Below, in pieces: positions 261 through 18,464 of a stretch of 35,588 nt of DNA. This stretch comes from Spirulina subsalsa CS-330. Lineage in GTDB: Bacteria; Cyanobacteriota; Cyanobacteriia; Cyanobacteriales; Spirulinaceae. The translations under genes were made by a program, and so were the position numbers. The stretch lies in contig NZ_JAQMTY010000225.1 in the NCBI RefSeq assembly GCF_028330765.1, positions 1 through 35,588 of the forward strand. Direction: 5' to 3'. Within the stretch, counting starts at the first letter, position 1. Each line of letters begins with the position of its first letter. A model generated the notes under the pieces. The model saw only the letters and a program-made list of their open reading frames with translations, did not search any database and was not told the origin of the DNA.

Positions 261-390
261 TGCCCTGACTGAAAGGGGGATTAAACACAGGCGAGGCCAA
301 CCTGAGAACGTTGTGTATCAGCAGTCGCTCCATCAACAAACCTGGTGCGATCGCACCGTTGACCCAACTTCCCCCAGGAGCAACCCCCGA

Positions 391-1254
391 TTAACTCCCC
401 CCAAGCTCCGAAAACTCACGGTTTAAAAAGGGTAACAAAATTTGCCCAATCTCCTGGCCCCAATGTTCTTGGGGGTAGTGTTTTGCCTCAGCGATCGCAT
501 TCCAATCCACCATCGGATTTTTTTGCAACTGTTGGCGCACCGGCTCCCCATCCAGCCAGGGATCAGCCATCCCCCAGATGATTTGCGTGGGCTTGCGCCA
601 TTGGGCGAGGTCTTGGCTGAGTTGACCCATGGCCTGGCTGAGGTTGAGCTTTTTCGCCGTCATCAGCAACGCCCGGCCCGCTTGGGAGCTTTTTAAAAAC
701 GGTTGACGATAGAAACTTAACTCATTTTCTTCAATCACCAAGCCGCTCCCCCCTTCTAGGGTGCGATCCACCAACAGCGGATCTTGGGTCAACATATCCC
801 CCACAAAGGGAATCGTCCAGCGTTGCATGATCCAAGGCACGGTCGCGCTGGTGGTGAGGGGGGTATTAAGGATGACGAGGCGATCGATCTGTTCGGGATG
901 ATTGCAGGCATATTGCACCCCCACCGAGCCAAGATAGCCCTGGGCCACGAGGGTAAACTGTTCAAGCTCCATCGCGGTGATCCAGTCCCCCAAGGCGGCT
1001 TCGTAGGCGGCGGGACTGTAGGCAAATTCGCGGGGCTGGGGCTTGGCCGAGCGACCAAACCCCAGCCAATCGGGGGCGATCGCACGATATCCGGCCGCCG
1101 CGCAGGTTTCCATCAAAATCCGCCAGCCGTAGCTATGGCAGAGAATGCCATGGATAAACAATACCGGGGGCTTGCCGTTGGGGACATCGGGGGTGATTTC
1201 CCGATAAAACCAATCGTGGCCACCGGCTGCGATCGTCTGTTCAGTTAAATTCAT
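391..1254 (-). CDS. Alpha/beta-fold hydrolase lacking a standard nucleophile
   Basis: The 287-residue protein starts at ATG 1254-1252; its ATG overlaps the leuD stop in an ATGA, so the genes are probably translationally coupled. The oxyanion motif is [12 protein letters not shown] (residues 33-44). The canonical nucleophile elbow reads AQGYLG at 104-109, with Gly106 where Ser or Asp is expected. A late acidic site (WGMADPW) and a histidine (AKHYPQEHW) remain. From memory, the protein resembles a cyanobacterial/chloroplast subfamily with the same glycine. Substrate is unknown and it may not use the usual Ser-His-Asp chemistry. A longer upstream frame exists but only inside leuD. Confidence 0.85.
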
Positions 1255-1847
1255 GCCGCACCCCAAGCGAGGTAGGGCAGTTGGGTGGCGGTGGTGCGCA
1301 CTTGGTCGGCGTTGGCCACCAGTTGGCCGCAACTGTCCCACTTGCCGCTGGTGAGCATCGTGCGGGGGCCGTCGGCGAGGGTGACGGGGAGGGTGAGGTC
1401 GCCAGCGGTGACGGTGAGGGCGACCAGATCGAGGCAAACGGTGAGACTGGGATCAGCTTCGAGGGCGGTTTGCAGTTGGGTGGCGTGGTCGGGGGTGACG
1501 GTGGCGCAGGGAATCCCCAGGGCGACACAGTTGCCGAAGAAAATTTCCGCAAAACTTTCGCCAATCACGGCTTGGATGCCCCATTTTTGCAGGGCTTGGG
1601 GGGCATGTTCACGGGAGGAACCGCAGCCAAAGTTACCATTGACCACCAAAATATTCGCCCCTTGGTACTGGGGTTGGTCGAAGGGGTGAGTGCCGTTGCT
1701 GGCGGCGCGATCGTCGGCGAAGGCATGGGCCCCCAACCCGTCAAAGGTGACGCAGCGCAGGTAACGGGCGGGGATGATGCGATCGGTGTCGATATCGCTG
1801 CCGCGCAGGGGGAGACCGCGGCCGGAAACGGTTTTCACTTCACTCAT
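1251..1847 (-). CDS. leuD: 3-isopropylmalate dehydratase small subunit
   Basis: This 198-residue protein has the usual length of LeuD. It shows the swivel-domain signatures: [15 protein letters not shown] near residue 16, and [17 protein letters not shown] near residue 70, which contributes to the substrate site. With LeuC, LeuD isomerises 2-isopropylmalate to 3-isopropylmalate in leucine biosynthesis. No leuC is adjacent, which is common in cyanobacteria. The gene overlaps the downstream hydrolase by 4 bp. The start at ATG 1847 gives the typical short N-terminus. Confidence 0.95.
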
Positions 1848-2032
1848 GGGTCTGTTTCAAGGGTAGGCGTGACCTCCTATGATACGCGATCGCGCTCCCC
1901 CACCCCATCGCCCCTAATCCGCAGGCAAGGGAATGAACTCCGTTTCCCCCGGAACCGGATCAAATCGCCCAGCGACCCCATGGTTATCCATTGTGGGCGA
2001 ATCGGGTGCTGGGAGAACCCTTTCAATCTGCC

Positions 2033-2158
2033 CTAGTGCAGCGTCAATGCCAAGAATTAGGATGTTTGTAGGGTGCTGTTAGCGAAGCGTAACGCACCGT
2101 CACGTTGAGTGTTGGACATTCAATACAATCCGAATATTAAGTCTTGACGCTGCACTAG
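2033..2158. mobile_element. MITE-like element, copy 1
   Basis: A 126-bp element has perfect 15-bp terminal inverted repeats: CTAGTGCAGCGTCAA at 2033-2047 and its complement at 2144-2158. Inside is a smaller hairpin around GTTAGCGAAGCGTAAC. No coding capacity is seen. A divergent copy in the opposite orientation lies at 33898-34020. It fills much of the leuD-GNAT gap; the rest of 1848-2175 shows nothing else recognisable. Confidence 0.75.
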
Positions 2159-2175
2159 TTCACTGAGCGCAATGT

Positions 2176-2673
2176 TTAAATTGAGGCATTGGTGGGTAGC
2201 CGTTTTCGATAGACTAAATCACAGCGGGGCGTTTCAACCCCTGTTGTTTTTTGATAGCCATTCTGTTCATATAACCGCACCGCTGCCGCTAAAGAAGTCG
2301 CCGTTTCGATCCAAATTTCTTGGAAGCCACGCTGTTGAATCGCGGTTTCTAAGGCCGTGAGTAAAAATCGCCCCAAACCTTGACCGCGCACCGATGGATG
2401 GAGATACATTTTACGAATTTCCACGGCATTTTCACCCCGTTCAATCGGATGATATGCCCCCGTACCCACCAGAGTTTCATCCTGTTCAATGACCCAAAAT
2501 TCACCCCCCTGATTAATGTAATGGGTTTCCACTTCGATCACATCTCGATCGGCTCGTTCCGGTTCCCACGGGAGACTGTATTCTTTTAAAATATCCCGAA
2601 TCAGGTGGGCGGCAGCGGCGCGATCGCACTCCTGCCAGTCTCGAATCACAAAGGTTTTGTAGGTTTGCGCCAT
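2176..2673 (-). CDS. GNAT family N-acetyltransferase
   Basis: This 165-residue protein has the GNAT fold signatures. The acetyl-CoA pyrophosphate loop reads VRGQGLGRFLL near residues 99-109, preceded by the beta-4 strand EIRKMYLHPS, and the C-terminal motif AVRLYEQNGYQ is present. It should transfer an acetyl group from acetyl-CoA to an amine on an unidentified substrate. It is transcribed alone, diverging from the P-type ATPase gene. The start at ATG 2673 gives a normal single-domain length. Substrate cannot be predicted. Confidence 0.88.
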   Translation of the reverse strand: MAQTYKTFVIRDWQECDRAAAAHLIRDILKEYSLPWEPERADRDVIEVETHYINQGGEFWVIEQDETLVGTGAYHPIERGENAVEIRKMYLHPSVRGQGLGRFLLTALETAIQQRGFQEIWIETATSLAAAVRLYEQNGYQKTTGVETPRCDLVYRKRLPTNASI

Positions 2674-2779
2674 GGCTAAAGAATATGGGCGAGATTAACC
2701 CGATTATTGTAACGTAGCGAGTTTTAACGCGGGCGATCGTGATGCTCCGGTTCAGACTTACCCCTTACATAAAATGCCT

Positions 2780-2880
2780 GATTGATAACAACAAAAATGA
2801 AGATGATAATCGTTTTAATAATCTAATTGGATAGAGAGAATTTTGAGCATTGATGATAATGATTCTGATTCTAAAATAGC
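2780..2880 (+). promoter_or_regulatory. AT-rich upstream region with Fur/Zur-like hexamer repeats
   Basis: The gap 2674-2970 holds no gene. It contains GATGATAATCG at about 2802-2812 and GATGATAATGATTCTGATT at 2852-2870. These resemble arrays of NAT(A/T)AT-type hexamers bound by Fur-family regulators (Fur, Zur). They lie upstream of a predicted zinc/cadmium exporter. A cleaner inverted repeat of the SmtB/ZiaR type was not found. The site is a candidate only. Confidence 0.3.
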
Positions 2881-2970
2881 ATTAAAATTTCCTCAAGTGG
2901 GGTGATTTTAAACGAGGTAAAGCGTTAGGATTAGAAGCAAGATTATGGCTTAGAAAAGAGAGTTTGAATC

Positions 2971-4878
2971 ATGACACAACCCGCCCCCGCCTCCTGTTGT
3001 CGTTGCTCGACCGCATCCCCACCGGGGTCTACCCATGATCCTGTCACCCCGTCTTATCGAGAATTGCAGCAGCTAGGGGCGATCGCGATCGTGGTGGCGG
3101 CGGGGGTTTGGATGCAGCAGAGTTTGCCCCAATGGCCGCTCGTGGCGGTGGGGGTGTTGGGCGGCGCGTATCTCTGGAGTGCCTGGCCGGTGCTGATCCA
3201 AGCGGGGCAGAATATTCTGCGGGGGCAGATGTTTGATGAGACGTTTTTGATGACGATCGCAACCCTGGGGGCGTTGGTGCTGGGGGAATATCCCGAAGCG
3301 GTGGCGGTGATGGTGTTTTATCGGGCGGGGGAATGGGTGCAAGAACAGGCCGTGGGCCAGTCGCGGCGATCGATCGCGGCGGTGTTGGCGGTGCGACCGG
3401 ATCGGGCGACGGTGTGGCGAGATCAAGCCTGGCAGAGGGTGAACCCGGAACAGGTGCAAGTGGGCGATCGCCTCCAAGTCAATCCCGGCGAAAAAATCCC
3501 CCTTGATGGCGTGGTGTTGACGGGAACCTCGGAAATTAATACGGCAGCGTTAACCGGGGAATCCATGCCCCGCCCTGTCGAACCGGGCGATCCGGCTCTC
3601 GCGGGGACTTTAAACCAAACGGGCCAACTCACCCTGCGCGTCACAAAACCGTTCGGGGAATCCTCCGTGAGCAAAATCCTCGATCTCGTCGAAAATGCTA
3701 GCCGCAGCAAGGCGAAAACCGCGAAATTCATCACCCAATTCGCCCAAATTTACACCCCGATCGTGGTGCTGGGTGCGATCGCCCTTGCCCTGATTCCCCC
3801 CTTAATCATTCCCGGTGCGACGGTGCAAACCTGGGGCTATCGGGCGTTGATTTTGCTGGTGGTGTCCTGTCCCTGTGGCTTGGTGATTAGCATTCCCCTG
3901 GGGTATTTCGGGGGGATTGGCGGCGCGGCAAAACGGGGCATTTTGGTGAAGGGGGCGACGTTCCTCGATACCCTGGCGCAGGTGAAAACGGTGGTGTTTG
4001 ATAAGACCGGAACCCTGACCCATGGCGAGTTTCAAGTTACCGATGTCCAGAGTGCCAACGGCCGCAGCCGGGCGGACTTGTTGGAACTCGCAGCCTATGC
4101 CGAAGCCCATTCCAGCCACCCGATCGCGGCCTCGATTCGCGCCGCCCACGGTCAGCCCTTGGATCTAGACCGGGTGACAGATTATCGCGAGGAGGCGGGT
4201 TATGGGGTGAAAACGCAGGTGCAGGATGCAACGGTTTGGGCGGGGAGCGATCGCCTTTTCCCTGATCTCGCCCTGCCCTCCACCACCGGAACGGTGGTAC
4301 ATCTCAGCGTTGATCACCACTACGCAGGCCATATCACCCTTGCCGATACCCCCAAACCCGACGCGGCCCTAGCGATCCAACGGTTGGCCCAGTTGGGCAT
4401 CACTCACACGGTAATGCTCACGGGCGACCAACCCAGCACCGCCGCCGCGATCGCCGCTCAATTGGGCGTGAGCGCCTACCGAGCGCAATTACTCCCGGAA
4501 GATAAAGTCACGGCAGTAGCAGAGATTCAACGGGAACGACCGGGAGCGATCGCCTTTGTGGGGGACGGGATTAACGACGCGCCCGCCCTCGCCCGTGCTG
4601 ATGTGGGGTTAGCGATGGGGGCCTTGGGGTCAGATGCGGCGATTGAAACGGCGGATGTGGTGCTGATGCAGGATACGCCGTTGCAGGTGGTGGAGGCGAT
4701 CGCGATCGCCCGACGCACCCGGCGCATCGTTTGGCAAAATATTGCGATCGCCCTCGGCATCAAAGGGTTCATGATTCTCCTCAGTGCCTGGGGGGTGGCG
4801 ACGCTGTGGGAGGCCGTTTTTGCCGATGTGGGGGTGGCTCTGCTTGCGATCGTCAACGCCACCCGGATCGCCCGTTAA
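2971..4878 (+). CDS. Heavy-metal P1B-type ATPase, Zn/Cd/Pb class
   Basis: The 635-residue membrane pump has the full P-type set: TGES in the actuator domain (195-198), the metal-site CPC in a membrane helix (300-302), the phosphorylation motif DKTGT (344-348), the HP dipeptide (383-384) and GDGINDAP (531-538). Lys598 in the seventh helix and Asp619 in the eighth match the P1B-2 subgroup that exports Zn2+, Cd2+ or Pb2+. There is no N-terminal HMA domain; only a short Cys-rich SCCRC at residues 8-12. It probably exports excess zinc or cadmium from the cytoplasm. No ArsR-type repressor gene is adjacent. The start at ATG 2971 follows an A/G-rich stretch (AAAAGAGAG). Confidence 0.92.
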   Translation: MTQPAPASCCRCSTASPPGSTHDPVTPSYRELQQLGAIAIVVAAGVWMQQSLPQWPLVAVGVLGGAYLWSAWPVLIQAGQNILRGQMFDETFLMTIATLGALVLGEYPEAVAVMVFYRAGEWVQEQAVGQSRRSIAAVLAVRPDRATVWRDQAWQRVNPEQVQVGDRLQVNPGEKIPLDGVVLTGTSEINTAALTGESMPRPVEPGDPALAGTLNQTGQLTLRVTKPFGESSVSKILDLVENASRSKAKTAKFITQFAQIYTPIVVLGAIALALIPPLIIPGATVQTWGYRALILLVVSCPCGLVISIPLGYFGGIGGAAKRGILVKGATFLDTLAQVKTVVFDKTGTLTHGEFQVTDVQSANGRSRADLLELAAYAEAHSSHPIAASIRAAHGQPLDLDRVTDYREEAGYGVKTQVQDATVWAGSDRLFPDLALPSTTGTVVHLSVDHHYAGHITLADTPKPDAALAIQRLAQLGITHTVMLTGDQPSTAAAIAAQLGVSAYRAQLLPEDKVTAVAEIQRERPGAIAFVGDGINDAPALARADVGLAMGALGSDAAIETADVVLMQDTPLQVVEAIAIARRTRRIVWQNIAIALGIKGFMILLSAWGVATLWEAVFADVGVALLAIVNATRIAR

Positions 4879-8682: not shown

Positions 8683-8896
8683 TCCCGTTTCGATCCCGTC
8701 TAACAGTTGAAAAATGAGCGTTTCCTCAATCGTTTATCGCCAACATCATGGGCGCTTTTGCTGCTTGTCCCACATTTTCCCCGTTATAACATACGCCGCT
8801 TTTTGCTCTAAGGCGAGGATTTCAATTCCCGACGGGGGGCACGATCGCACCCCCCACTCGCTAAGATCAACCCTAAACCCTGTCTTTTTCCCGCCC

Positions 8897-11782
8897 ATGA
8901 ATGCCGTTGAAATCGAAGCCGCCGTGTCCCAGCTTGCCGCTGCACCTTTTGATCCGGAAGATTTCCCCTTTGCATTTCTAACCGCCTTTGGCAACAAGGC
9001 GACGACGATCAAGCGGCTCCGGAGCAAAAAAAGCAGTTCTAACCAATCCGACCTTGGCGGCGTGCTTCAGCGTAACAACATTCACATTAAGGTGTGCGGC
9101 GCGGGGGAGGTGACGGCGACGCTGACAGCGTTGCGGGAGAGTGCCGCGACGACGCGACAGAAGGCGAAGTTTATCCTGGCGACGGATGGCGACAGTCTGG
9201 AGGCGGAAAACCTCAGCGATGGGGATGCGATCGCTTGTCCCTACGCAGATTTGCCGGACTATTTCGGGTTTTTCTTGCCCCTCGCGGGGATCACGACGGT
9301 TCAGCAAATCCGCGAAAATGCGTTTGATATCAAGGCCACGAGTCGGCTGAATCGGCTTTATGTGGAGTTATTGAAAACTAATCCGGATTGGGACAAGGGC
9401 GATCGCCGCGATGCGATGAATCATTTCATGGCGCGGTTAATTTTCTGTTTTTTCGCGGAAGATACGAACATTTTCCACAGTGACGGCCTGTTTACCCAAA
9501 CGATCGCCCAAATGAGCGCACCCGATGGCTCGAACACCCACGAGGTTTTAGGGGAAATTTTCCGAGCGATGGCGATCGCACCCCAGGAGCGCAAAACGGC
9601 GGGACTCCGCAATTGGGCGGATCAGTTTCCCTATGCCAATGGGGGGCTGTTTAGCCCTCATCCCCTAGCCCCTTCTCCCGTGGGAGAAGGGGAACCGGAA
9701 GGTCTTCCCCCCCTCTCCCGTGGGAGAGGGGCCGGGGGTGAGGGCGTTCCCCGGTTCAGCAAAATCGCCCGATCGCACCTGATCCATGTGGGCGGTCTGG
9801 ATTGGACGAAGATTAACCCGGATATTTTCGGCTCGATGATTCAAGCGATCGCGGATGAGGCGGAGCGGGGCGCGTTGGGGATGCACTACACGAGTGTGCC
9901 GAATATCCTCAAGGTGTTAAATCCGTTGTTTTTGGATGATCTGCGGGGTCAGTTGGCGGCGGCGGGGGACAGTGGGCGGAAGTTGCTCAATCTGCGGCAA
10001 CGGTTGGCGAAGATTCGGGTGTTTGATCCGGCTTGTGGGTCGGGGAATTTTTTGGTGATTGCCTATAAGGAGATGCGGGCGATCGAGGCGGAAATTAATC
10101 AGCGGCGGGGGGAGGCGAATCGGGCTTCTGAGATTCCGTTAACGAATTTTCGGGGGATTGAAATTCGGTCGTTTGCGGCGGAGGTGGCGCGGTTGGCGTT
10201 GATTATTGCGGAATATCAATGTGATGTGTTGTATCGGGGGCAATTGTTAGCATTAGCGGAGTTTTTGCCGTTAAAAAATGACAATTGGATTACTTGCGGG
10301 AATGCGTTGCGCTTGAATTGGTTGGAGTTATGTCCACCGACGGGAACGGGGGTCACGGTGCAGCGGGAGGATTTGGATCTGTGGCAGGAAACGAAAGACG
10401 AGGCAGAGATTGATTTTCAAAATGAGGGGGGAGAAACCTACATTTGTGGCAATCCGCCTTATGTGGGTTCGACTTGGCAAACGAAGGAACAGAAAGACGA
10501 TTTAAAGCAAATTTTTGAGGGTCGTACAAAGCTTTGGAAGTCATTGGATTATGTGGCGGGTTGGTTTATGAAGGCGGCAGATTATGGAACGCAGACGAAT
10601 GCGGCGGCGGCGTTTGTTTCGACTAATTCGATTTGTCAGGGGCAACAAGTAGCGATTTTATGGTCGTTAATCTTTGAGACGGGACATGAAATTAATTTTG
10701 CTCATACCTCTTTTAAATGGGCAAATTTAGCAAGTCATAATGCAGGAGTTACCGTTGTTATTGTCGGAATTGCTCAACAGTCTAAAAAGGTTAAATATTT
10801 ATTTTCTATTGATGAAAAGAATCACACTATAGCTAAGGAAGCGATAAATATTAATGCTTATTTGGTAGATGGAAAAAATGTAATTGTTGAAAAAGTTACA
10901 AAGCCATTAAGTGATATCACTGAGATGAATTTTGGTAGTAAACCTGTTGATGGAGGGAATCTACTTTTATCTAGAGACGAACTGTATAAAATGAATTTAT
11001 CTTTAGAAGAAAAAAATAAATTTATTCGAGTCATTTTAGGATCAGATGAATTCATCTCAGGAAAACAAAGATACTGTATTTGGATAAAAGATGAAGAAGC
11101 TGAAATTGCCAGACGTAATCCGGTAATTAACTTACGATTAGAAGCTGTTAAAAAAATGCGCTTAAGTAGCTCTAAGGTTGCAACACAAAAAGGGGCTAAA
11201 TGGTCACATAGATTTGATGAACGTCGTCAAATTGGAAATGAAACTATAATTACAATTGCTGCTATTAGCTCGGAAAATAGAGAGTATTTACCTTGTGGAT
11301 TGTTGCCATGCGGAACAATTATTTCAAATAAATGTTTTGCCCTTTATGATGCACCCCTCTGGAACATGGCTCTAATCGCCTCGCGCCTCCATTGGGTTTG
11401 GATCGGTACAGTTTGCGTCAGAATGAGAACCGATTTTTCTTACTCCAATACCCTCGGCTGGAACACCTTTCCCGTCCCCAAACTCACCACCCAAAACAAA
11501 AAAGACCTCACCCGCTGCGCCGAAAACATCCTCCTCGCCCGTGAGCATTACTTCCCCGCCACCATCGCCGAAATGTACGACCCCAAACACATGGACAAAG
11601 ACTATCCCGAACTCCGCCACGCCCACAACCAAAACGACGAAACCCTCGAACGCATCTACATCGGCCGCCGCTTCAAAAACGACACCGAACGCCTCGAAAA
11701 ACTCTTCACCCTCTACACCCAAATGACCACCCCAAAACCCCCCACCCCATCCAAAACCAAAAAACAAAAAAAAGATAAATAA
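8897..11782 (+). CDS. MmeI-like N6-adenine DNA methyltransferase
   Basis: From ATG 8897 the protein has 961 residues; an upstream frame to 8714 looks non-coding. It has the layout of MmeI-like type IIG enzymes: N-terminal domain (1-140), helical spacer (145-345), methyltransferase with SAM motif FDPACGSGNFL (376-386) and catalytic NPPY (519-522), a target-recognition region (about 585-825) and a helical C-terminus. It should methylate adenine and provide sequence specificity. I see no clear PD-(D/E)XK nuclease motif at the N-terminus, so cutting may be done by the downstream GIY-YIG protein. Residues 254-283 are an in-frame repeat insertion. The target-recognition DNA is markedly AT-rich. The last 45-50 codons recur four times downstream. 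Confidence 0.9.
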   Translation: MNAVEIEAAVSQLAAAPFDPEDFPFAFLTAFGNKATTIKRLRSKKSSSNQSDLGGVLQRNNIHIKVCGAGEVTATLTALRESAATTRQKAKFILATDGDSLEAENLSDGDAIACPYADLPDYFGFFLPLAGITTVQQIRENAFDIKATSRLNRLYVELLKTNPDWDKGDRRDAMNHFMARLIFCFFAEDTNIFHSDGLFTQTIAQMSAPDGSNTHEVLGEIFRAMAIAPQERKTAGLRNWADQFPYANGGLFSPHPLAPSPVGEGEPEGLPPLSRGRGAGGEGVPRFSKIARSHLIHVGGLDWTKINPDIFGSMIQAIADEAERGALGMHYTSVPNILKVLNPLFLDDLRGQLAAAGDSGRKLLNLRQRLAKIRVFDPACGSGNFLVIAYKEMRAIEAEINQRRGEANRASEIPLTNFRGIEIRSFAAEVARLALIIAEYQCDVLYRGQLLALAEFLPLKNDNWITCGNALRLNWLELCPPTGTGVTVQREDLDLWQETKDEAEIDFQNEGGETYICGNPPYVGSTWQTKEQKDDLKQIFEGRTKLWKSLDYVAGWFMKAADYGTQTNAAAAFVSTNSICQGQQVAILWSLIFETGHEINFAHTSFKWANLASHNAGVTVVIVGIAQQSKKVKYLFSIDEKNHTIAKEAININAYLVDGKNVIVEKVTKPLSDITEMNFGSKPVDGGNLLLSRDELYKMNLSLEEKNKFIRVILGSDEFISGKQRYCIWIKDEEAEIARRNPVINLRLEAVKKMRLSSSKVATQKGAKWSHRFDERRQIGNETIITIAAISSENREYLPCGLLPCGTIISNKCFALYDAPLWNMALIASRLHWVWIGTVCVRMRTDFSYSNTLGWNTFPVPKLTTQNKKDLTRCAENILLAREHYFPATIAEMYDPKHMDKDYPELRHAHNQNDETLERIYIGRRFKNDTERLEKLFTLYTQMTTPKPPTPSKTKKQKKDK
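9655..9744 (+). repeat. In-frame palindromic repeat inside the methyltransferase gene
   Basis: Exactly 90 bp, starting CCCTCATCCCC and ending GGGGGTGAGGG, form two hairpins (CCCCTTCTCCC-gt-GGGAGAAGGGG and CCCCTCTCCC-gt-GGGAGAGGGG). They encode 30 extra residues rich in Pro, Gly, Ser and Glu between the conserved NGGLFS and VPRFSKIARS. The same family occurs at 16802-16918 and 18495-18588. The length is a multiple of three, so the frame is kept. Confidence 0.8.
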
Positions 11783-11816
11783 TCGTCAAAAAACTACACC
11801 CCCGGAGATTCTAACC

Positions 11817-12092
11817 ATGTCCAAAACAACCGTAGAACGGCAAAATTTAATCGAAGCCGTCAACGCCCTACCCGATGAAGTGCTCATCGAACTGGCCAAC
11901 TTTGTTGAATATCTACAATATAAAACAGTCCAGCAGCAGCCCACCAACTCACCCCCGCAAAACTTCCTATTGGCGATCGCCGGTTTAGGAAAATCCGGAC
12001 AACCCGACACCTCCGATCATGACGAAGAAATTCTACACAATGAGATTGACACAATTCATGGCTGGAGCAGCAAACCAGGAGATAAGCCATGA
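11817..12092 (+). CDS. DUF2281-like VapB-type antitoxin (module 1)
   Basis: This 91-residue protein has a helical core, NLIEAVNALPDEVLIELANF, matching the LP(D/E)-x4-E-x-L-x-F pattern seen in two other antitoxins of this array. The C-terminal half is polar and probably binds the toxin. A GGAG precedes ATG 11817. Its stop overlaps the toxin start as ATGA (12089-12092), typical of co-translated antitoxin-toxin pairs. It begins only 34 bp after the methyltransferase stop. Confidence 0.8.
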   Translation: MSKTTVERQNLIEAVNALPDEVLIELANFVEYLQYKTVQQQPTNSPPQNFLLAIAGLGKSGQPDTSDHDEEILHNEIDTIHGWSSKPGDKP

Positions 12093-12502
12093 CCGGAATC
12101 CTCGATACCAGTTTTTTATTTGCTTTAACAGATCAGAGCGATCGTAACCATCAACGAGTGCTCACCGTTGCCCAGAACGCCAACGAACAGTTAGTGCTAC
12201 CCGTCATCGTCTTACCGGAAATCTGTTATCTAATTTTTTCAAGATTAGGACATCTCGCCATGCGTCGCTTTGTGGCCAGCATGACACCTGATCTCGTTCA
12301 CATTGAAACCATGAAAACAGAGGATCTGGTACGAGTACAGCAAATTCTAGAGCAATATGCCGATAATCAACTTGATTTTACAGATGCAGCAATTATTACA
12401 ATCGCTGAACGGTTAGAAATTCCCCGCGTTTACACCCTTGATCGTCGAGATTTTTCAGTGATACGCCCAAAACACTGTGATTATTTCGAGTTAATCCCTT
12501 GA
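12089..12502 (+). CDS. PIN-domain toxin, VapC-like (module 1)
   Basis: This 137-residue protein has the acidic residues of a PIN ribonuclease: Asp6 (ILDTS), Glu44 (LPEICY), Asp99 (FTDAA) and Asp118/Asp121 (TLDRRDF). It should cleave RNA unless neutralised by the antitoxin encoded just upstream. The set of catalytic residues is complete, so this toxin may be active. The first orphan methyltransferase tail begins about 10 bp after its stop. Confidence 0.88.
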   Translation: MTGILDTSFLFALTDQSDRNHQRVLTVAQNANEQLVLPVIVLPEICYLIFSRLGHLAMRRFVASMTPDLVHIETMKTEDLVRVQQILEQYADNQLDFTDAAIITIAERLEIPRVYTLDRRDFSVIRPKHCDYFELIP

Positions 12503-12512
12503 AAGCGATCGC

Positions 12513-12632
12513 AACGACGAAACCCTCGAACGCATCTACATCGGGCGACGATTTAAAAATGAAAGCGATCGCTTAGAAAAACTCTTCACCCTCTACACCC
12601 AAATGACCACCCCAAAATCACCCAAACCATGA
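12513..12632 (+). pseudogene. Orphan methyltransferase tail 1 (C-terminal fragment)
   Basis: The 39 codons from 12513 to a TGA at 12630-12632 encode NDETLERIYIGRRFKN and continue to LEKLFTLYTQMTTPK, nearly identical to the methyltransferase C-terminus, but ending SPKP. The DNA differs at many silent positions, so it derives from another allele rather than a recent copy. The fragment begins right after a HIP1 octamer (12505-12512). Its stop overlaps the start of the MNT gene as ATGA. There is no start codon or complete domain. Confidence 0.85.
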
Positions 12633-12949
12633 ATTTAACCCTACAACCCGTCTTAAAATTCCTTAAACAGGATCTCACCCAACTCTATGGCGATCGCCTC
12701 ATTCAACTCATCCTCTTTGGTTCCCAAGCCCGTGGTGATCATGAACCAGACTCTGATATTGATGTTCTCGTCGTGTTGCGATCGCTCACCAATCCTGGCG
12801 AAGAAATTAAACGCACCGGCAAAATTGTGGCCGATCTTTCTCTTCAGTATGATGTCGTCATTAGCTGCCTCTTCATGACAGAAATCGACTACCAAACCCG
12901 CAACAACGCACTACTTCGTAATATTCATCAAGACGGAATTTTGCTATGA
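12629..12949 (+). CDS. MNT-type nucleotidyltransferase antitoxin (module 2)
   Basis: This 106-residue protein has the minimal nucleotidyltransferase signature GS-x10-D-x-D: Gly31-Ser32, Asp43 and Asp45, in a GSQARGD...SDIDVLVV context. In MNT-HEPN pairs the MNT protein neutralises its HEPN partner, in studied cases by AMPylation. Its ATG overlaps the stop of the orphan tail, and its own stop overlaps the HEPN start (ATGA at 12946-12949). This shows that the gene was once translated directly behind a methyltransferase. Confidence 0.88.
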   Translation: MNLTLQPVLKFLKQDLTQLYGDRLIQLILFGSQARGDHEPDSDIDVLVVLRSLTNPGEEIKRTGKIVADLSLQYDVVISCLFMTEIDYQTRNNALLRNIHQDGILL

Positions 12950-13326
12950 ATAATGAACAGCAAGAACTCCTTCTCAAAGCCCAACAAAGCCTAGAAGCTG
13001 CAAAACTTCTCCTTGCCAATAACTATCCAGACTATGCAGTATCTCGCGCCTATTACACCATGTTTTATCTTGCTGAGGCCTTCTTAGATAGTCGTAAACT
13101 TTCTTTTTCTAAGCATTCTGCTGTCATTGCTGCATTTGGTCGAGAATTTGCTAAAACAGGGCTAATTGCACCAGAGTTTCACCGCTTCTTAATTGAAGCC
13201 CAAGAACTCCGCACCACTGGCGACTATGGACAATTCAACGCCGTAACTCATAGCCAAGCCACTGAACAAATTGACCGCGCCGAACAATTTCTCAACCTAG
13301 CCATTCAAGGGATTAACTCAATTTGA
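12946..13326 (+). CDS. HEPN-domain toxin (module 2)
   Basis: This 126-residue, all-helical protein has the HEPN signature SRAYYTMFYLAEAFL (about residues 33-47). It is the predicted RNA-targeting toxin of the pair with the MNT gene, with which it overlaps by 4 bp. I do not see a clear Rx4-6H catalytic motif, so it may be of the HEPN subclass without it; whether it cuts RNA is uncertain. It ends 33 bp before the second orphan tail. Confidence 0.82.
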   Translation: MNNEQQELLLKAQQSLEAAKLLLANNYPDYAVSRAYYTMFYLAEAFLDSRKLSFSKHSAVIAAFGREFAKTGLIAPEFHRFLIEAQELRTTGDYGQFNAVTHSQATEQIDRAEQFLNLAIQGINSI

Positions 13327-13359
13327 TTAACTCGATAACCCATCGATATCAGTCACAAA

Positions 13360-13476
13360 TTCAAAAACGACACCGAACGCCTCGAAAAACTCTTCACCCT
13401 CTACACCCAAATGACCACCAAACCAGAGACAGAAAAAAAAGCCAGCAAACGTAAAAATGCAAAGCGATCAGGTTAG
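13360..13476 (+). pseudogene. Orphan methyltransferase tail 2 (C-terminal fragment)
   Basis: From 13360 an open stretch of 38 codons encodes FKNDTERLEKLFTLYTQMTT, identical to the methyltransferase C-terminus, then a different extension (KPETEKKASKRKNAKRSG) before TAG 13474-13476. The NDTER form matches the intact gene; tails 1, 3 and 4 carry an NES form. It starts further inside the gene than tails 1 and 3. The own stop and own extension indicate origin from a distinct methyltransferase allele. Confidence 0.83.
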
Positions 13477-13510
13477 GATAAGTATGTTGTTTTCAGCAGG
13501 AGGTAGCCTT

Positions 13511-13717
13511 ATGGAACAGATTATTCTCAAACGACTTCAGCAATTACCAGAATCAGCACAGCAAGAAGCATTGCAATTCATCGATCAACTACTCGCTAAA
13601 TACCAACAGCCTCAGCAATTTATGAGCCGCAAAGAAGCCTTCGGTATTTGGCGAGGCAAACTCTGGATGGCAGACGACTTTGATGCACCGTTAGAAGAAT
13701 TAGCGGAGTATATGTAG
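13511..13717 (+). CDS. DUF2281-like antitoxin (module 3)
   Basis: The 68-residue protein starts at ATG 13511, chosen over an upstream in-frame ATG at 13457 because a strong AGGAGG (13498-13503) precedes it. The helical core LKRLQQLPESAQQEALQFIDQLL matches the family of the other two VapB-like antitoxins here. The C-terminus contains a toxin-binding-type segment (SRKEAFGIWRGKLWMADDFD). Its stop overlaps the GTG start of a damaged PIN toxin, so it may be an antitoxin without a working toxin. Confidence 0.82.
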   Translation: MEQIILKRLQQLPESAQQEALQFIDQLLAKYQQPQQFMSRKEAFGIWRGKLWMADDFDAPLEELAEYM

Positions 13718-13887
13718 TGTCAGATTTTTTAATTGATACACATACACTCCTCTGGTTTATTGAAGCCGATCCAAGATTGAGTGATCGGGCTAGAAATGTA
13801 CTGATGAACGACAGTATTAACCTCTCTGTGAGTGTTGTCAGTGCTGACAATGTGTTTGGCTCCTATGAAATAGATCGATTTTGGTAA
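13717..13887 (+). pseudogene. PIN-domain toxin with in-frame internal deletion (module 3)
   Basis: A GTG at 13717 opens 56 codons. Residues 1-42 are a normal PIN start (SDFLIDTHTLLWFIEADPRLS). Residues 41-56 (VSADNVFGSYEIDRFW) match the usual C-terminal end of the same VapC subfamily. The central 70 or so residues, with the remaining catalytic acids, are missing, and the reading frame is kept. VVSA-like codons are common at both places in this subfamily, so deletion between short repeats is plausible. The product should be inactive as a nuclease. It is shorter than half of a normal 125-130-residue toxin. Confidence 0.78.
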
Positions 13888-13912
13888 ATCCTCTCCCTAT
13901 TAAGGCGATCGC

Positions 13913-14078
13913 AACGACGAAACCCTCGAACGCATCTACATCGGGCGACGGTTTAAAAACGAGAGCGATCGCGTAGCGTTGCGAAGCAAATCGCCTCGAA
14001 AAACGCTTCTAACTCTACACCCAAATGACCACTCCAAAACCCCCCACCCCACCAAAAAACCAAAAATCTAAACCATAA
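13913..14078 (+). pseudogene. Orphan methyltransferase tail 3 (frame broken)
   Basis: It starts directly after a HIP1 octamer (13905-13912), at the same position in the gene as tail 1, with codons for NDETLERIYIGRRFKNESDR. A 22-bp insertion at 13973-13994 shifts the frame. Beyond it the original frame resumes (LEKRF), meets a TAA, and continues as LYTQMTTPKPPTPPKNQKSKP to TAA 14076-14078. The decay marks it as older than tails 1 and 2. Confidence 0.82.
13973..13994. repeat. 22-bp HIP1-linked insertion, copy 1
   Basis: The insert GTAGCGTTGCGAAGCAAATCGC follows GCGATCGC inside orphan tail 3. The same 22 bp sit at the same place in orphan tail 4 (14807-14828). Its ends repeat part of the HIP1 octamer. 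Confidence 0.7.
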
Positions 14079-14111
14079 TAGGAATGAAATCTACCGCCAC
14101 CCCTAAAAATC

Positions 14112-14345
14112 ATGACAGCCGCAGAAAAACTCTATCAACTCATCCAAACCCTCCCAGAAAGCCAAATCAACGAAATTCTCCACTTTGCCCAATTTCTTCA
14201 ACACAAACACCCCTCTCCTCCCCCCGCTATTCCCCCCGGAACCCTCACCGGACTTCGAGGCATAGCCAAACATCCTGGCATAGCACCCAGTGATGATGAA
14301 CTACAAACAGAATACATAAACTATCTGACCCAAAAATACCAGTAA
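14112..14345 (+). CDS. DUF2281-like VapB-type antitoxin (module 4)
   Basis: This 77-residue protein has the helical core KLYQLIQTLPESQINEILHFAQFLQHK, again of the LPE-x4-E-x-L-x-F type shared with modules 1 and 3. A proline-rich linker (PSPPPAIPPG) leads to a C-terminal toxin-binding-type region. It is 33 bp downstream of orphan tail 3 and 8 bp upstream of its toxin. A same-strand overlapping frame at 14084 is a shadow. Confidence 0.8.
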   Translation: MTAAEKLYQLIQTLPESQINEILHFAQFLQHKHPSPPPAIPPGTLTGLRGIAKHPGIAPSDDELQTEYINYLTQKYQ

Positions 14346-14353
14346 GCCTACCC

Positions 14354-14761
14354 GTGAAAGTTCTCATCGATACCAACATTGTCCTAGACCTAATCCTAGA
14401 ACGGGAACCCTTTATTGAGGCGGCGATCGCCCTCTTCGAGCAAATTGAACAAGGCAAATTAGAAGGCTATATTGCTGCAACGACTATCACCAATATTTTC
14501 TACATCATCCGTAAAATGAAAGGTCGTGAAGTTGCTCTTGCGGCTATCCATCGGCTCCTAACCGGCCTCCAATTTTGTACTGTTGATCGGCAAACTGTTG
14601 AAACAGCCTTCAGCCTAGATCTAACAGACTTTGAAGATAGCATCCAACTCGCCTGTGCCACCATTGCTCAATTGGATGCGATCATAACCCGTGATCATCA
14701 AGACTTTATGAATAGCAACATTCCTGTTTACTCCTCCACCGAAATCATCAACCAGCTTTAG
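14354..14761 (+). CDS. PIN-domain toxin, VapC-like (module 4)
   Basis: A GTG at 14354 opens 135 codons. Asp6 (VLIDTN), Asp95 (DFEDS) and Asp114/Asp117 (ITRDHQDF) fit a PIN nuclease. At residue 47 (TITNIFYIIRK) the sequence has Asn where relatives usually have Asp or Glu, so one metal-binding acid may be lost. It is not closely related to the module 1 toxin. The fourth orphan tail follows within 8 bp. Confidence 0.85.
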   Translation: MKVLIDTNIVLDLILEREPFIEAAIALFEQIEQGKLEGYIAATTITNIFYIIRKMKGREVALAAIHRLLTGLQFCTVDRQTVETAFSLDLTDFEDSIQLACATIAQLDAIITRDHQDFMNSNIPVYSSTEIINQL

Positions 14762-14768
14762 CGAAAAA

Positions 14769-14903
14769 CATTCATCGAGTGACGCTTCAAAAACGAGAGC
14801 GATCGCGTAGCGTTGCGAAGCAAATCGCCTCGAAAAACTCTTCTAACTCTACACCCAAATGACCACCCCAAAATTATTAAAAACCCAAAAAGGAAAATCA
14901 TAG
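14769..14903 (+). pseudogene. Orphan methyltransferase tail 4 (frame broken)
   Basis: This copy starts within the IYIGRRF codons, already altered, and contains the same 22-bp insertion (14807-14828) as tail 3 and the same ACC-to-TAA change after LEKLF. It then reads LYTQMTTPKLLKTQKGKS to TAG 14901-14903. The shared defects show that tails 3 and 4 had a common, already broken ancestor, yet their last codons differ. Confidence 0.8.
14807..14828. repeat. 22-bp HIP1-linked insertion, copy 2
   Basis: Same 22-bp sequence and same insertion point as at 13973-13994, inside orphan tail 4. Confidence 0.7.
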
Positions 14904-14972
14904 GATAAGCGATCGCCGCCTAGCATGATTTAGACATCAGAGGGTAAACAGGGATTTAGGGTGACGGCAATG

Positions 14973-15082: not shown

Positions 15083-17269
15083 ATGAACAAACCTGTCTCT
15101 GTTCCCGCCGTTTCCGTCACCTATGCCCACGATGGCCGCTCCACCCAAGCCAATGAACTGGGGATGCGCCCGATGCAAGAACGCGCCTACAACAAACGCG
15201 GCGAACAATATTTATTGATCAAATCACCCCCCGCCTCTGGGAAAAGTCGCGCCCTGATGTTCATTGCCCTCGATAAATTGATCCACCAAGGGCTGAAACA
15301 GGCGATCGTCGTTGTGCCAGAAAAGTCGATTGGGTCTAGTTTTCAGGATGAACCCCTGTCACACTATGGCTTTTTTGCCGATTGGACAGTTGCGCCGCGC
15401 TGGAATCTTTGCAATGCGCCGGTCACCGATAGCGGCAAAGTGAACGCGGTGCAAGCCTTCCTCAAGAGTGAGGATCAAATCTTGATTTGCACCCATGCAA
15501 CCTTTCGGTTTGCGGTGGAACGGTTGGGCATTGAACCGTTAGATGATCGCCTCATTGCGGTGGATGAATTTCACCATGTTTCGGCGAATCCTGATAATAA
15601 ATTAGGGGAGCAGGTGCGGCAATTGATGACCCGCGATCGCGCCCATATTGTCGCGATGACCGGCTCCTATTTTCGCGGCGATGCGATCGCGGTACTGCAC
15701 CCCGAAGATGAAAACCGCTTTGAGACGATCACCTACACCTATTATGAACAACTCAACGGCTATCAATACCTCAAACAATTAGACATCGGCTATTACTTTT
15801 ATGCGGGGAACTATGCCAGCGAAATTATGCGGGTGCTCAATCCAAACGAGAAAACCATTGTGCATATTCCGAATGTCAACTCCCGCGAAAGTACCAAGGA
15901 TAAAATCCGCGAAGTGGAGCATATTCTTGACACCCTCGGCGAATGGCAAGGCACTGACCCCAAAACGGGGTTTCAGTTGATTCGTACCCCCGACGGGACG
16001 GTGCTGAAGGTGGCGGACTTGGTGGATGATGACCCGACGAAGCGCGATCGCGTCGTTACGGCCCTCAAAGACCCCACCCAAAAAGAAAACCGCGACCATG
16101 TGGATATCATCATTGCCCTGGGGATGGCAAAAGAAGGGTTTGATTGGATTTGGTGTGAACACGCGCTGACGGTGGGGTATCGGTCGAGCTTGACGGAAAT
16201 TGTCCAGATTATTGGTCGTGCGACCCGTGACGCACCGGGCAAGACCCGCGCCCGCTTTTCTAACCTGATCGCAGAACCCGATGCGGCCAGTGAGGTGGTG
16301 ACGGAGGCGGTGAATGATATGTTAAAGGCGATCGCCGCCAGTTTGCTGATGGAACAAGTGCTGGCGACCCGTTTTGAATTTCGCCCCAAACGCCCCGACA
16401 ATCAACCAACAGCGGGGTATGACTATGGCCCGGAGGGGTATGATCCGACGGGTTGTAATGTGGGCATCAATCGGCAGACGGGCCAGGTGCAACTGGAGAT
16501 TAAGGGCCTCGCAATGCCGAAAAGCCGGGAAGCCCAGCGGATTTGCGCGGAAGATTTGCTCGAACTAACGACGGCATTGGTGCAAGATAAACCCTCGATT
16601 GAGCGGGGCTTGTTTGATTCGGAACTCGTGCCGGAAGAAATTACCACGGTACGGATGGGGAAGATTATCCAGGAAAAATATCCCACCATTGAACCGGAGG
16701 ATCAAGAGGCAGTGCGCCAACATGCGATCGCTGCCTTCAACCTCGTACAGCAGGGCAAAAAATACATCCTCAATGAAACCGGAGGAACCTACGATCTTCT
16801 CCCCTCGCCCCTGGGAGAGGGGCCGGGGGTGAGGGAAGACCCCTCGCCCTTGGGAGAGGGGCCGGGGGTGAGGGCAGATCCCTCGCCCCTGGGAGAGGAG
16901 CCGGGGGTGAGGGAAGACCCCGAACCGACGAAAAACACTGCCCTGATCGATGGGGTGAAACAGTTCGCCCTCTCGGTCACTGATCTCGATATGGATCTGA
17001 TCGATCGCATTAATCCCTTTGGGGAAGCCTACGCCATCCTTGCCAAAGCCATGAACGAAGAACGCCTCCAACAGATCGCGGCGGTGATTACGGCTAAACG
17101 GTTGAGCCTCAGTATGGACGAGGCGCGAGACCTGGCCCACCGCGCCGTCCGGTTTAAGCAGGAGCGGGGTCGCTTGCCTGCGCTGACGGCGGCAGACCCC
17201 TGGGAGCGACGTATGGCTGAGGGGGTCGCATTCCTACAGCGCAAAGTCAAGGAGGATAGGGATGGTTAA
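15083..17269 (+). CDS. SF2 helicase of the restriction-like system
   Basis: This 728-residue protein has superfamily 2 motifs: Walker A SPPASGKSR (48-56), a DEFH box (161-164), motif III TGS (193-195) and motif VI QIIGRATRD (375-383). It should use ATP to move along or remodel DNA, comparable to the translocase part of type I or III restriction enzymes. Residues 574-612 are three in-frame copies of a 13-residue repeat, a genomic repeat insertion. It overlaps the GIY-YIG gene by 8 bp and lies behind the methyltransferase and toxin-antitoxin array on the same strand. Confidence 0.88.
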   Translation: MNKPVSVPAVSVTYAHDGRSTQANELGMRPMQERAYNKRGEQYLLIKSPPASGKSRALMFIALDKLIHQGLKQAIVVVPEKSIGSSFQDEPLSHYGFFADWTVAPRWNLCNAPVTDSGKVNAVQAFLKSEDQILICTHATFRFAVERLGIEPLDDRLIAVDEFHHVSANPDNKLGEQVRQLMTRDRAHIVAMTGSYFRGDAIAVLHPEDENRFETITYTYYEQLNGYQYLKQLDIGYYFYAGNYASEIMRVLNPNEKTIVHIPNVNSRESTKDKIREVEHILDTLGEWQGTDPKTGFQLIRTPDGTVLKVADLVDDDPTKRDRVVTALKDPTQKENRDHVDIIIALGMAKEGFDWIWCEHALTVGYRSSLTEIVQIIGRATRDAPGKTRARFSNLIAEPDAASEVVTEAVNDMLKAIAASLLMEQVLATRFEFRPKRPDNQPTAGYDYGPEGYDPTGCNVGINRQTGQVQLEIKGLAMPKSREAQRICAEDLLELTTALVQDKPSIERGLFDSELVPEEITTVRMGKIIQEKYPTIEPEDQEAVRQHAIAAFNLVQQGKKYILNETGGTYDLLPSPLGEGPGVREDPSPLGEGPGVRADPSPLGEEPGVREDPEPTKNTALIDGVKQFALSVTDLDMDLIDRINPFGEAYAILAKAMNEERLQQIAAVITAKRLSLSMDEARDLAHRAVRFKQERGRLPALTAADPWERRMAEGVAFLQRKVKEDRDG
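16802..16918 (+). repeat. Three tandem 39-bp in-frame repeat units in the helicase gene
   Basis: Units 16802-16840, 16841-16879 and 16880-16918 each encode a version of PSPLGEGPGVRED. Each 39-bp unit carries a palindrome around CTGGGAGAGGGG and the GGGGGTGAGGG end shared with 9655-9744 and 18495-18588. Total 117 bp keeps the frame. Confidence 0.82.
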
Positions 17270-18464
17270 AAAAATGCCGCAAACCACAGACAGCGATCGC
17301 GAACTCTTAGGGGAATTGGGGATTGATCTCACGGCTCCGGCTCCGGTGCAGTATTCCCCCCGTGAGGAGCGGATCATCGCCGGATTTGAGGAGATCGAGC
17401 GGTTTGTCTCGGCGCAGGGACGCTTACCCCAGCATGGCGATGACCGGGATATTTTCGAGCGTCTCTATGCCGTGCGTCTCGATCGCCTGCGCCGCTTAGA
17501 AGACTGTCGCACCCTCCTCGAACCGTTGGACTCGCGGGGCTTACTCACAGCAACCCCAGATCTGGAGGTTCCGCCGGCACTGGATGATCAGGCGTTGCTG
17601 GCGGAACTGGGTTTGGATGGGGCGGCGGTGGATGATGTGACCCAATTAACCCATGTGCGATCGCGTCAAGACATTAAAGCCGCTGAGGAAATCGCCCAGC
17701 GCACCCCCTGCGAGGACTTCAACCAATTTAAACCCCTGTTCCAACAGGTTAAGCAGGCATTAAAAACCGGGGCGCGTCACACCCTGAAATATCAAGACAA
17801 TGCGGCGATTCAGGCGGGAAATCTTTTCATTCTTGACGGGCAGATGGTGCTCGTGGCGGCGATGGGGGAGTTTTTCATCAGTGACTATGGCCGCCCCAAT
17901 GCAGAATTGCGGGTGATTTATGACAACGGTACAGAGAGCAATCTTTTACTGCGATCGCTGCAACGGGCCTTGAACCGCGATCGCACCAGTCGCCGGATCA
18001 CCGAACTCGTCAGCAACTTTGGCCCCCTCTTCGCCCCCCAGAATCTCACCCCTACCGATCGGCACACCGGCCAGGTCTACGTGTTGCGCAGTCAATCGGA
18101 TCATCCCTTCATCGCGGCACACCGCACCCTGATCCACAAAATCGGCATGACCAGCGGCGATGTGAACCAACGGATCATCCATGCCGCTAAAGACCCCACC
18201 TATCTCCTCGCTGCGGTCGAAATCGTCACCACCTTCCAACTCGCAAACATCAACCCGAAAAAACTCGAAGCCCTCCTCCACCGATTTTTTGAGGCGGCGC
18301 GGTTGGATCTGGAATTGATGGATCGGTTTGGGTTACCGGTGCAGCCGCAAGAGTGGTTTTTTGTGCCGTTGGGGGCGATTGAGGCAGCGATCGCCCACAT
18401 CCAAGCGGGCACGCTCGATCAGGTTCACTATGATCTCGAAACCGCCAGCATCATTGCTCGGTAG
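17262..18464 (+). CDS. GIY-YIG nuclease with T5orf172-type C-terminal domain
   Basis: The 400-residue protein has a C-terminal GIY-YIG fold: QVYVL (271-275) for GIY, HKIGMT (292-297) for YIG, the catalytic-type Arg304 (DVNQR), Glu335 in LEALLHRFF and the closing QEWFFVPL (363-370). Residues 1-250 are unrecognised. It should nick or cut DNA and is the best nuclease candidate for the methyltransferase-helicase system. A GGAGG (17251-17255) six bases before ATG 17262, inside the helicase gene, supports this start and tight coupling. Confidence 0.85.
   Translation: MVKKMPQTTDSDRELLGELGIDLTAPAPVQYSPREERIIAGFEEIERFVSAQGRLPQHGDDRDIFERLYAVRLDRLRRLEDCRTLLEPLDSRGLLTATPDLEVPPALDDQALLAELGLDGAAVDDVTQLTHVRSRQDIKAAEEIAQRTPCEDFNQFKPLFQQVKQALKTGARHTLKYQDNAAIQAGNLFILDGQMVLVAAMGEFFISDYGRPNAELRVIYDNGTESNLLLRSLQRALNRDRTSRRITELVSNFGPLFAPQNLTPTDRHTGQVYVLRSQSDHPFIAAHRTLIHKIGMTSGDVNQRIIHAAKDPTYLLAAVEIVTTFQLANINPKKLEALLHRFFEAARLDLELMDRFGLPVQPQEWFFVPLGAIEAAIAHIQAGTLDQVHYDLETASIIAR

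What the first reader, a model, noticed from the sequence alone, without database searches (positions are those of the whole stretch)
11450..14910. Methyltransferase 3' end is repeated four times, each copy following a toxin-antitoxin module
Seen directly: after the intact gene (tail encoding LERIYIGRRFKN and LEKLFTLYTQMTT) come four orphan tails at 12513-12632, 13360-13476, 13913-14078 and 14769-14903. Each follows one toxin-antitoxin module: 11817-12502, 12629-13326, 13511-13887, 14112-14761. The tails differ in silent positions and in their last codons, so they come from different alleles. Inference: TA modules enter or are exchanged at the 3' end of this methyltransferase by recombination in its conserved tail, so the tail works like an attachment or recombination site and the array is a layered record of past insertions. 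Distal tails are more decayed than proximal ones, fitting oldest-last order. I do not know of a described system of this kind.
Basis: partly seen in the sequence, partly recalled or inferred. Interest (0 to 1): 0.92.

Follow-up and report, generated by a model that had tools for sequence, protein, structure and literature searches.

The report
Toxin-antitoxin modules stacked behind restriction gene
In many cyanobacteria the slot just behind a restriction-modification gene is filled with interchangeable toxin-antitoxin and other small modules, and displaced copies of that gene's tail between some of them suggest they were added one after another by recombination.

Summary
Behind an intact MmeI-like (type IIL) restriction-modification gene (8714-11782) lie four orphan copies of its last ~100 nt, each after a toxin-antitoxin (TA) module, then a helicase and a T5orf172-domain gene. 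Of 89 related loci with both MTase and helicase, 25 have at most 20 nt between them and 62 hold 0.4-5.4 kb there. In cyanobacteria ten or more module families are reshuffled in this slot. I found 22 orphan tails in 11 of 43 cyanobacterial genomes and 2 in 65 other loci. Window modules 1, 3 and 4 sit directly behind a full-length MTase elsewhere (module 2 only behind incomplete ones); same-genus G002 carries module 3 behind a gene ending KRSG, as predicted. G000/G002 identity is 88-97% through the conserved tail and falls inside its last codons. Left edges vary and are enriched for the HIP1 palindrome. Best explanation: serial insertion and exchange by recombination in the tail, like the displacement proposed for Rhs/CDI/T6SS arrays, here with TA cargo in a restriction operon. 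'Different alleles' and strict oldest-last order are not supported. Function of the cargo is untested.

The parts
8714..11782 (+). MmeI-like (type IIL) restriction-modification gene, intact; the anchor gene
   Evidence: Pfam MmeI_N, MmeI_hel, MmeI_Mtase, MmeI_TRD, MmeI_C all above cutoff
11633..11728 (+). conserved tail block of the intact gene (NDETLERIYIGRRFKNDTERLEKLFTLYTQMT)
11729..11782 (+). variable terminal codons (...KKDK*); same KKDK ending before the same module in G162, G121, G137
11817..12502 (+). TA module 1: DUF2281 antitoxin + PIN toxin
12505..12512 (+). HIP1 palindrome GCGATCGC at the left edge of orphan tail 1
12513..12632 (+). orphan tail 1 (88% identical to own gene over 118 nt); its stop overlaps the next gene's start (ATGA)
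12629..13326 (+). TA module 2: MNT-type nucleotidyltransferase + HEPN protein
13336..13476 (+). orphan tail 2, 5'-truncated, ending KRSG*
13511..13887 (+). TA module 3: DUF2281 antitoxin + truncated PIN remnant
13905..13912 (+). HIP1 palindrome at the left edge of orphan tail 3
13913..14078 (+). orphan tail 3, with a 22-nt insert (13973) and a stop
14112..14761 (+). TA module 4: DUF2281 antitoxin + PIN_3 toxin
14763..14904 (+). orphan tail 4, most decayed; 94% identical to tail 3 over 101 nt and sharing its insert and stop
15083..17269 (+). DEAD/ResIII-type helicase gene, usual operon partner of the MTase
17262..18464 (+). T5orf172/MUG113-domain gene (GIY-YIG-type nuclease by recall), third gene

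Best explanation
The gap between the MTase and helicase genes of a widespread type IIL restriction operon is an accessory slot. TA and other small modules are added, swapped and lost there by recombination in the conserved last ~100 nt of the MTase. A module arrives linked to the terminal codons and short spacer in front of it, and often to a piece of tail behind it. A crossover in the tail keeps the MTase intact, gives it the donor's last codons, and pushes the old tail and old module downstream. First joins appear to be made at short homologies, often a HIP1 palindrome behind the module matching CGATCGC codons in the tail; once two tails exist, ordinary homologous recombination between tails can insert, delete or reorder modules. 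Shown: the slot, the reshuffling, the orphan tails, the identity break in the tail, the HIP1 enrichment. Inferred: crossover as the cause, uptake from other cells, a circular or multi-tail donor, and any benefit to the operon.
For: Orphan tails: 22 in 11 of 43 cyanobacterial genomes, all on the MTase strand, 20 behind the MTase or in front of the helicase as far as contigs show, 2 upstream of the G082 MTase. Two cases in 65 other loci lie at insert boundaries (L146 fused to the end of RhuM just before the helicase; L126, weak, between two inserts). Empty state: MTase stop within 20 nt of the helicase in 3 of 27 cyanobacterial and 22 of 62 other loci holding both genes. Seven families occur behind an MTase-attached tail in some genomes and an orphan tail in others: PINa, MNT_S09, PINb, PIN3, UPF0175, MNT2, Uma2 (28 of the 40 attached tails belong to frames of over 900 codons). 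G000/G002 DNA identity in 60-nt windows: 43-73% from 10701 to 11330, 88-97% for windows from 11451 to 11661, then 78%, 62% and 42%; window tail 2+module 3 matches G002 tail+module at 67-95% up to the toxin deletion. Linker in front of a module is more alike within than between families (p=1e-4; thinned p=0.005) while the tail block is not (p=0.23; 0.85). HIP1 lies at 8 of 22 left edges against 0.9 expected (thinned 5 of 15, p=1e-4), and in 0 of 40 attached tails. After the DUF3368 module the tail begins at the same codon in Limnothrix and Spirulina.
Against: Many multi-module arrays have no detectable tail between modules (L108, G514 and G355 none; G082 one among several), so tails are either lost quickly or not always needed. 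Six of 20 orphan tails are not closest to their own gene, and of 14 orphans tested only two have a same-family linker as best match. Left edges for the HIP1 test were judged by eye, and HIP1 could arise by one mutation from CGATCGC. G000/G002 does not tell insertion in one from deletion in the other. In five Laspinema/Oscillatoria-group genomes no helicase follows within the fetched stretch, so the operon is not always whole. No recombination event was watched.
Confidence: 0.75

Rival explanations
1. Site-specific integration: the tail is an attachment site, each module a small element whose integrase acts in trans.
For: Displaced 3' ends behind a restored gene are typical of integrative elements (recalled); 20 of 22 orphan tails lie on the downstream side.
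Against: No recombinase among the window's module genes or among 10 cyanobacterial insert proteins typed elsewhere, one of which has no Pfam match. Left edges differ by about 100 nt between genomes and between copies in G007; a fixed cut site would give fixed edges.
Confidence: 0.06
2. Segmental duplication inside the genome: the MTase end was duplicated in tandem and modules were later inserted at the spare copies by chance or through short dispersed repeats.
For: Own-genome similarity of tails (14 of 20 closest to own gene); tails 3 and 4 share decay; the two tails of G176 and the two of L102 share left edges; short palindromic repeats at several edges.
Against: Does not explain why most tails run on through their own stop and a short spacer into a module, nor why the same modules follow attached genes elsewhere.
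Confidence: 0.15
3. The tails are kept because they act on the modules, as leader peptide, translational coupler or RNA element.
For: Tail 1 stop overlaps the next start (ATGA); modules and RM genes are all on one strand.
Against: Tails 3 and 4 carry stops and an insert, G007 tail 1 is frameshifted; many modules occur in arrays without tails; promoter and terminator scans show no excess.
Confidence: 0.04

Closest known systems
Rhs arrays formed by C-terminal displacement (Jackson 2009, PMC2935791)
   Same: Intact gene followed by a row of displaced pieces, each with a conserved fragment of variable length; [quoted passage not shown] displaced pieces are attached to intact genes in other strains.
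   Different: There the displaced part is the variable end of the protein itself; here the gene stays complete and the cargo is a separate module behind its stop codon.
Orphan cdiA-CT/cdiI arrays of CDI systems (Poole 2011, PMC3150448; author name recalled)
   Same: Arrays of orphan toxin/immunity pairs, varying lengths of upstream gene fragment, module borders at the conserved VENN motif, orphans fused to full-length genes elsewhere.
   Different: Secreted toxin fused to the anchor protein; here intracellular TA pairs and a DNA-modifying enzyme.
T6SS immunity arrays in Vibrio cholerae (PMC5361080)
   Same: Sequential displacement, an effector 3' end shifted downstream, suggested homology-facilitated illegitimate recombination plus homologous recombination.
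   Different: Immunity genes are kept and effectors lost; here three of the four window modules keep both genes.
TA embedded in a restriction operon (DarTG2 between hsdS and hsdR, PMC12255303)
   Same: TA genes within an RM operon at a site called a potential recombination hotspot.
   Different: Type I system, single insert; the passages I saw mention no displaced gene tails or serial arrays.

Membership tests
MmeI-like type IIL restriction-modification enzyme | MmeI N, helicase-spacer, MTase, TRD and C-terminal domains in one protein | tested here: met
   all five Pfam domains above cutoff
MmeI-like type IIL restriction-modification enzyme | active methylation and cleavage | not testable with these tools
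   needs an assay
Rhs/CDI-type displacement array | orphan units downstream of an intact gene, each with a fragment of that gene | tested here: met
Rhs/CDI-type displacement array | orphan cargo found attached to full-length genes in other genomes | tested here: met
   met for PINb and PIN3 of the window; for MNT_S09 only behind incomplete MTase genes
Rhs/CDI-type displacement array | cargo toxin is the C-terminal end of the anchor protein | tested here: not met
   in the window the anchor stop codon precedes the first module and each tail is followed by a separate ORF
Integron cassette array | integrase gene and attC recombination sites | tested here: inconclusive
   no integrase among the window's module ORFs; repeats are protein-coding tails with variable edges; the genome was not scanned for an integrase and attC structure was not tested
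Integrative element at a gene 3' end | recombinase plus fixed att boundaries | tested here: not met
   no recombinase in the window's modules, variable left edges
Type II toxin-antitoxin modules | paired small genes of known antitoxin and toxin families | tested here: met
   DUF2281/PIN, nucleotidyltransferase/HEPN, DUF2281/PIN_3; module 3 toxin truncated; some modules of relatives (Uma2, the 340-aa/Fic pair) are not plain TA pairs
Type II toxin-antitoxin modules | toxicity and neutralisation | not testable with these tools
   needs expression tests

The most novel reading that the evidence does not exclude
The conserved 3' end of this restriction gene works as a general docking sequence: a recombinase-free, integron-like platform that collects and trades defence and addiction modules between cells inside a restriction operon, in cyanobacteria and, more rarely, in other phyla.
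Probability: 0.35. Interest if true: 0.8.

Novelty: new variant of a known kind. Interest (0 to 1): 0.64.

Why it matters
Defence genes are often found nested inside other defence operons, and how they get there is seldom visible. Here displaced gene tails record insertions, so borders, order and sources of module capture can be read from sequence and tested. It carries a displacement process proposed for secreted toxins over to intracellular TA modules and restriction systems. No restriction-TA locus with displaced gene tails appeared in the listings of seven searches of the open-access library (8-15 titles shown each); that library holds only part of the literature.

Tried and rejected
Chance or assembly artefact: rejected, 0.00 expected repeats and assemblies of other species show the same pattern. 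Ancient fixed block: rejected by differing module sets. Dispersed mobile repeat: no tail-only match elsewhere at E up to 1e-5 in the genomes apart from second contigs of G007 and G070, where the match lies ~1 kb from a contig end and I infer the same locus; but the decayed tails of G002 and G082 were missed at that threshold, so decayed tails elsewhere may be missed too. Cyanobacteria-only: weakened by L146 and L126. Promoter or terminator in each tail: scans gave no excess (6 against 5.9, 2 against 4.3). Linker as a sharp per-tail marker: only statistical.

Dropped or marginal rows: G012 and G043 (MTase fragments without a tail) and five named loci that duplicate G genomes are left out of counts; 20 loci without a helicase in the fetched stretch are not among the 89; the linker test used 44 of 46 tails with an assigned module, of 61; one dN/dS pair (PIN_3 window/G007) was read in the wrong frame and is not used. 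In one search, 7 of 24 cyanobacterial loci beat their controls, five clearly, G138 and G514 barely (not counted as tails); G470 did not beat them; of 38 others L146, L126 and, barely, L153 did. The script labelled the second MTase of G149 'orphan', which it is not. L191 shows a duplicated MTase half, not a plain orphan tail. The 43 and 65 loci are best matches, not a random sample.

Changed on rechecking: insert length 22 nt; 'full-length gene' claimed for three modules instead of four; confidence lowered from 0.77 to 0.75 for that, and two rivals raised by 0.01 each.
Full report
The observation. The window holds an intact MmeI-like restriction-modification gene (8714-11782; five MmeI Pfam domains) followed by four orphan copies of its last ~100 nt, each behind a small module. 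The modules are DUF2281+PIN, nucleotidyltransferase+HEPN (PADLOC PDC-S09 for the first gene), DUF2281+truncated PIN, and DUF2281+PIN_3. After them come a helicase and a T5orf172-domain gene. A 20-base piece of the tail occurs five times with no mismatch against none expected, and a DNA search of the own genome found tail matches nowhere else.

The slot. In most relatives MTase, helicase and nuclease genes follow one another. Over 89 non-duplicate loci in which both MTase and helicase were found, 25 have at most 20 nt between them (3 of 27 cyanobacterial, 22 of 62 other), 2 have 21-249 nt and 62 have inserts of 250 nt or more. In 20 further loci no helicase was found downstream, often because a contig ends; in G162, G121, G187, G089 and G149 none follows within the several kb fetched. 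In Lyngbya HA4199 stop and start overlap as ATGA. So the window's 3.3 kb is extra DNA in a usually compact operon. Inserts typed by Pfam in other phyla include RhuM, DUF1016/YhcG, RelB/YafQ, a Schlafen AlbA_2 protein and a PD-(D/E)XK nuclease; in cyanobacteria UPF0175, DUF3368, Uma2, nucleotidyltransferase/HepT, Fic, an addiction-module component, ParE and a helix-turn-helix protein besides those of the window (20 proteins typed, 4 without a match; one search listed 186 insert ORFs, duplicates included).

Orphan tails elsewhere. In the 65 non-cyanobacterial loci two have one: L126 (weak) between two inserts, and L146, where the end of an inserted RhuM gene is fused to a copy of the MTase end directly before the helicase. 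Against shuffled and upstream pieces L146 scores 63 (controls up to 27) and L126 39 (controls up to 29).

Full-length MTase genes (frames over 900 codons) with the matching module directly behind exist for window module 1 (G162, G121, G137), module 3 (G002) and module 4 (L102). Module 2 was found behind an MTase only in G061 and L136, whose frames in front of the tail are 412 and 392 codons. The sharpest case is G002, same genus: its gene ends ...KRSG and is followed by the module that in the window sits behind orphan tail 2, also ending KRSG. Window and G002 are 88-97% identical in 60-nt windows from 11451 to 11661, near the level of the first ~700 nt of the helicase (80-98%), but 43-73% over the target-recognition part before it and 62% to 42% in the terminal codons after it. 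So the conserved end stayed while specificity domain and downstream module changed. Whether the window gained or G002 lost modules cannot be told from two genomes.

Reshuffling. Ten or more families recur in the slot in different order and company. Linker DNA in front of a module is more alike within a family than between families (0.313 against 0.233, p=1e-4; 0.267 against 0.230, p=0.005 after thinning), whereas the conserved tail block is not (p=0.23 and 0.85). This is what crossovers inside the block predict. Cargo genes are under constraint (dN/dS 0.03-0.20 in 11 usable pairs, several with saturated dS), while tails carry stops, inserts and frameshifts.

Edges. On the right most tails run on into stop codon, spacer and module. 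The left edges vary: window tails 1 and 3 and L105 begin right after HIP1 (GCGATCGC|AAYGACGAA), three G007 tails share one edge, the two of G176 share one, the two of L102 share one, and after the DUF3368 module the tail begins at the same codon in Limnothrix and Spirulina. HIP1 lies at 8 of 22 left edges against 0.9 by chance (thinned 5 of 15; p=1e-4), no attached tail of 40 holds a full HIP1, and 19 of 40 hold CGATCGCAA at the matching codons (edges judged by eye). This suggests short-homology joins, with the caution that HIP1 may arise by mutation.

The window's tails are each closest to the window's own gene (4 of 4; 14 of 20 overall), so they are not plainly foreign alleles; gene conversion or own-tail duplication must play a part. 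Tails 3 and 4 share an insert and a stop, so one module entered at, or was copied with, a tail already out of use. Arrays without detectable tails exist (L108, G514, G355).

What is known. Rhs arrays are explained by displacement of C-terminal tips through homologous recombination with circular intermediates (PMC2935791, passages); CDI arrays carry orphan modules bordered by the VENN motif, with counterparts on full-length genes elsewhere (PMC3150448, passages); rhs main/orphan recombination was reported over a 522-bp region of 95% identity (PMC3967940, passages); T6SS arrays are explained by sequential displacement and perhaps homology-facilitated illegitimate recombination (PMC5361080, passages). 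A TA system inside a type I restriction operon is described (PMC12255303, passages). The window joins these two lines: a displacement array made of TA modules in a restriction operon. I file it as a new variant, not as a member of the Rhs/CDI kind, because the cargo is not part of the anchor protein.

Function. I think the modules act as independent TA or abortive-infection units that gain from, and perhaps stabilise, a mobile restriction operon; this is inference.

Noticed in passing
window 10701-11450 against G002: Target-recognition part of the MTase is swapped between same-genus genomes (DNA identity 43-73%) while the C-terminal block stays 88-97% identical: specificity exchange with a border near 11330-11450.
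   Followed up: partly
window 9669-9752 and 16800-16921: The same ~39-nt GC-rich repeat lies inside both the MTase and helicase coding frames, adding repeats to two proteins of one operon.
   Followed up: no
L046 (G149): Two full-length MTase genes in tandem in front of a PINa antitoxin remnant.
   Followed up: partly
L191 3024-6707: A viral-collection contig with the C-terminal half of the MTase duplicated in tandem; may be real or an assembly chimera.
   Followed up: partly
L041 (G007), oriented 348-3618: Spirulina subsalsa has a helicase and a T5orf172 gene upstream of its MTase.
   Followed up: no
L038 (G082): Two orphan tails with a shared ~100-nt trailer lie upstream of the MTase, and a third copy with the same trailer lies downstream.
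   Followed up: no
L145 5241-5294: A 53-nt copy of the 3' end of the nuclease gene lies upstream in the same locus; the only such match in 57 non-cyanobacterial loci.
   Followed up: no
window 13717-13887: The PIN toxin of module 3 has an internal deletion; the G002 homologue is also cut short at its end.
   Followed up: partly
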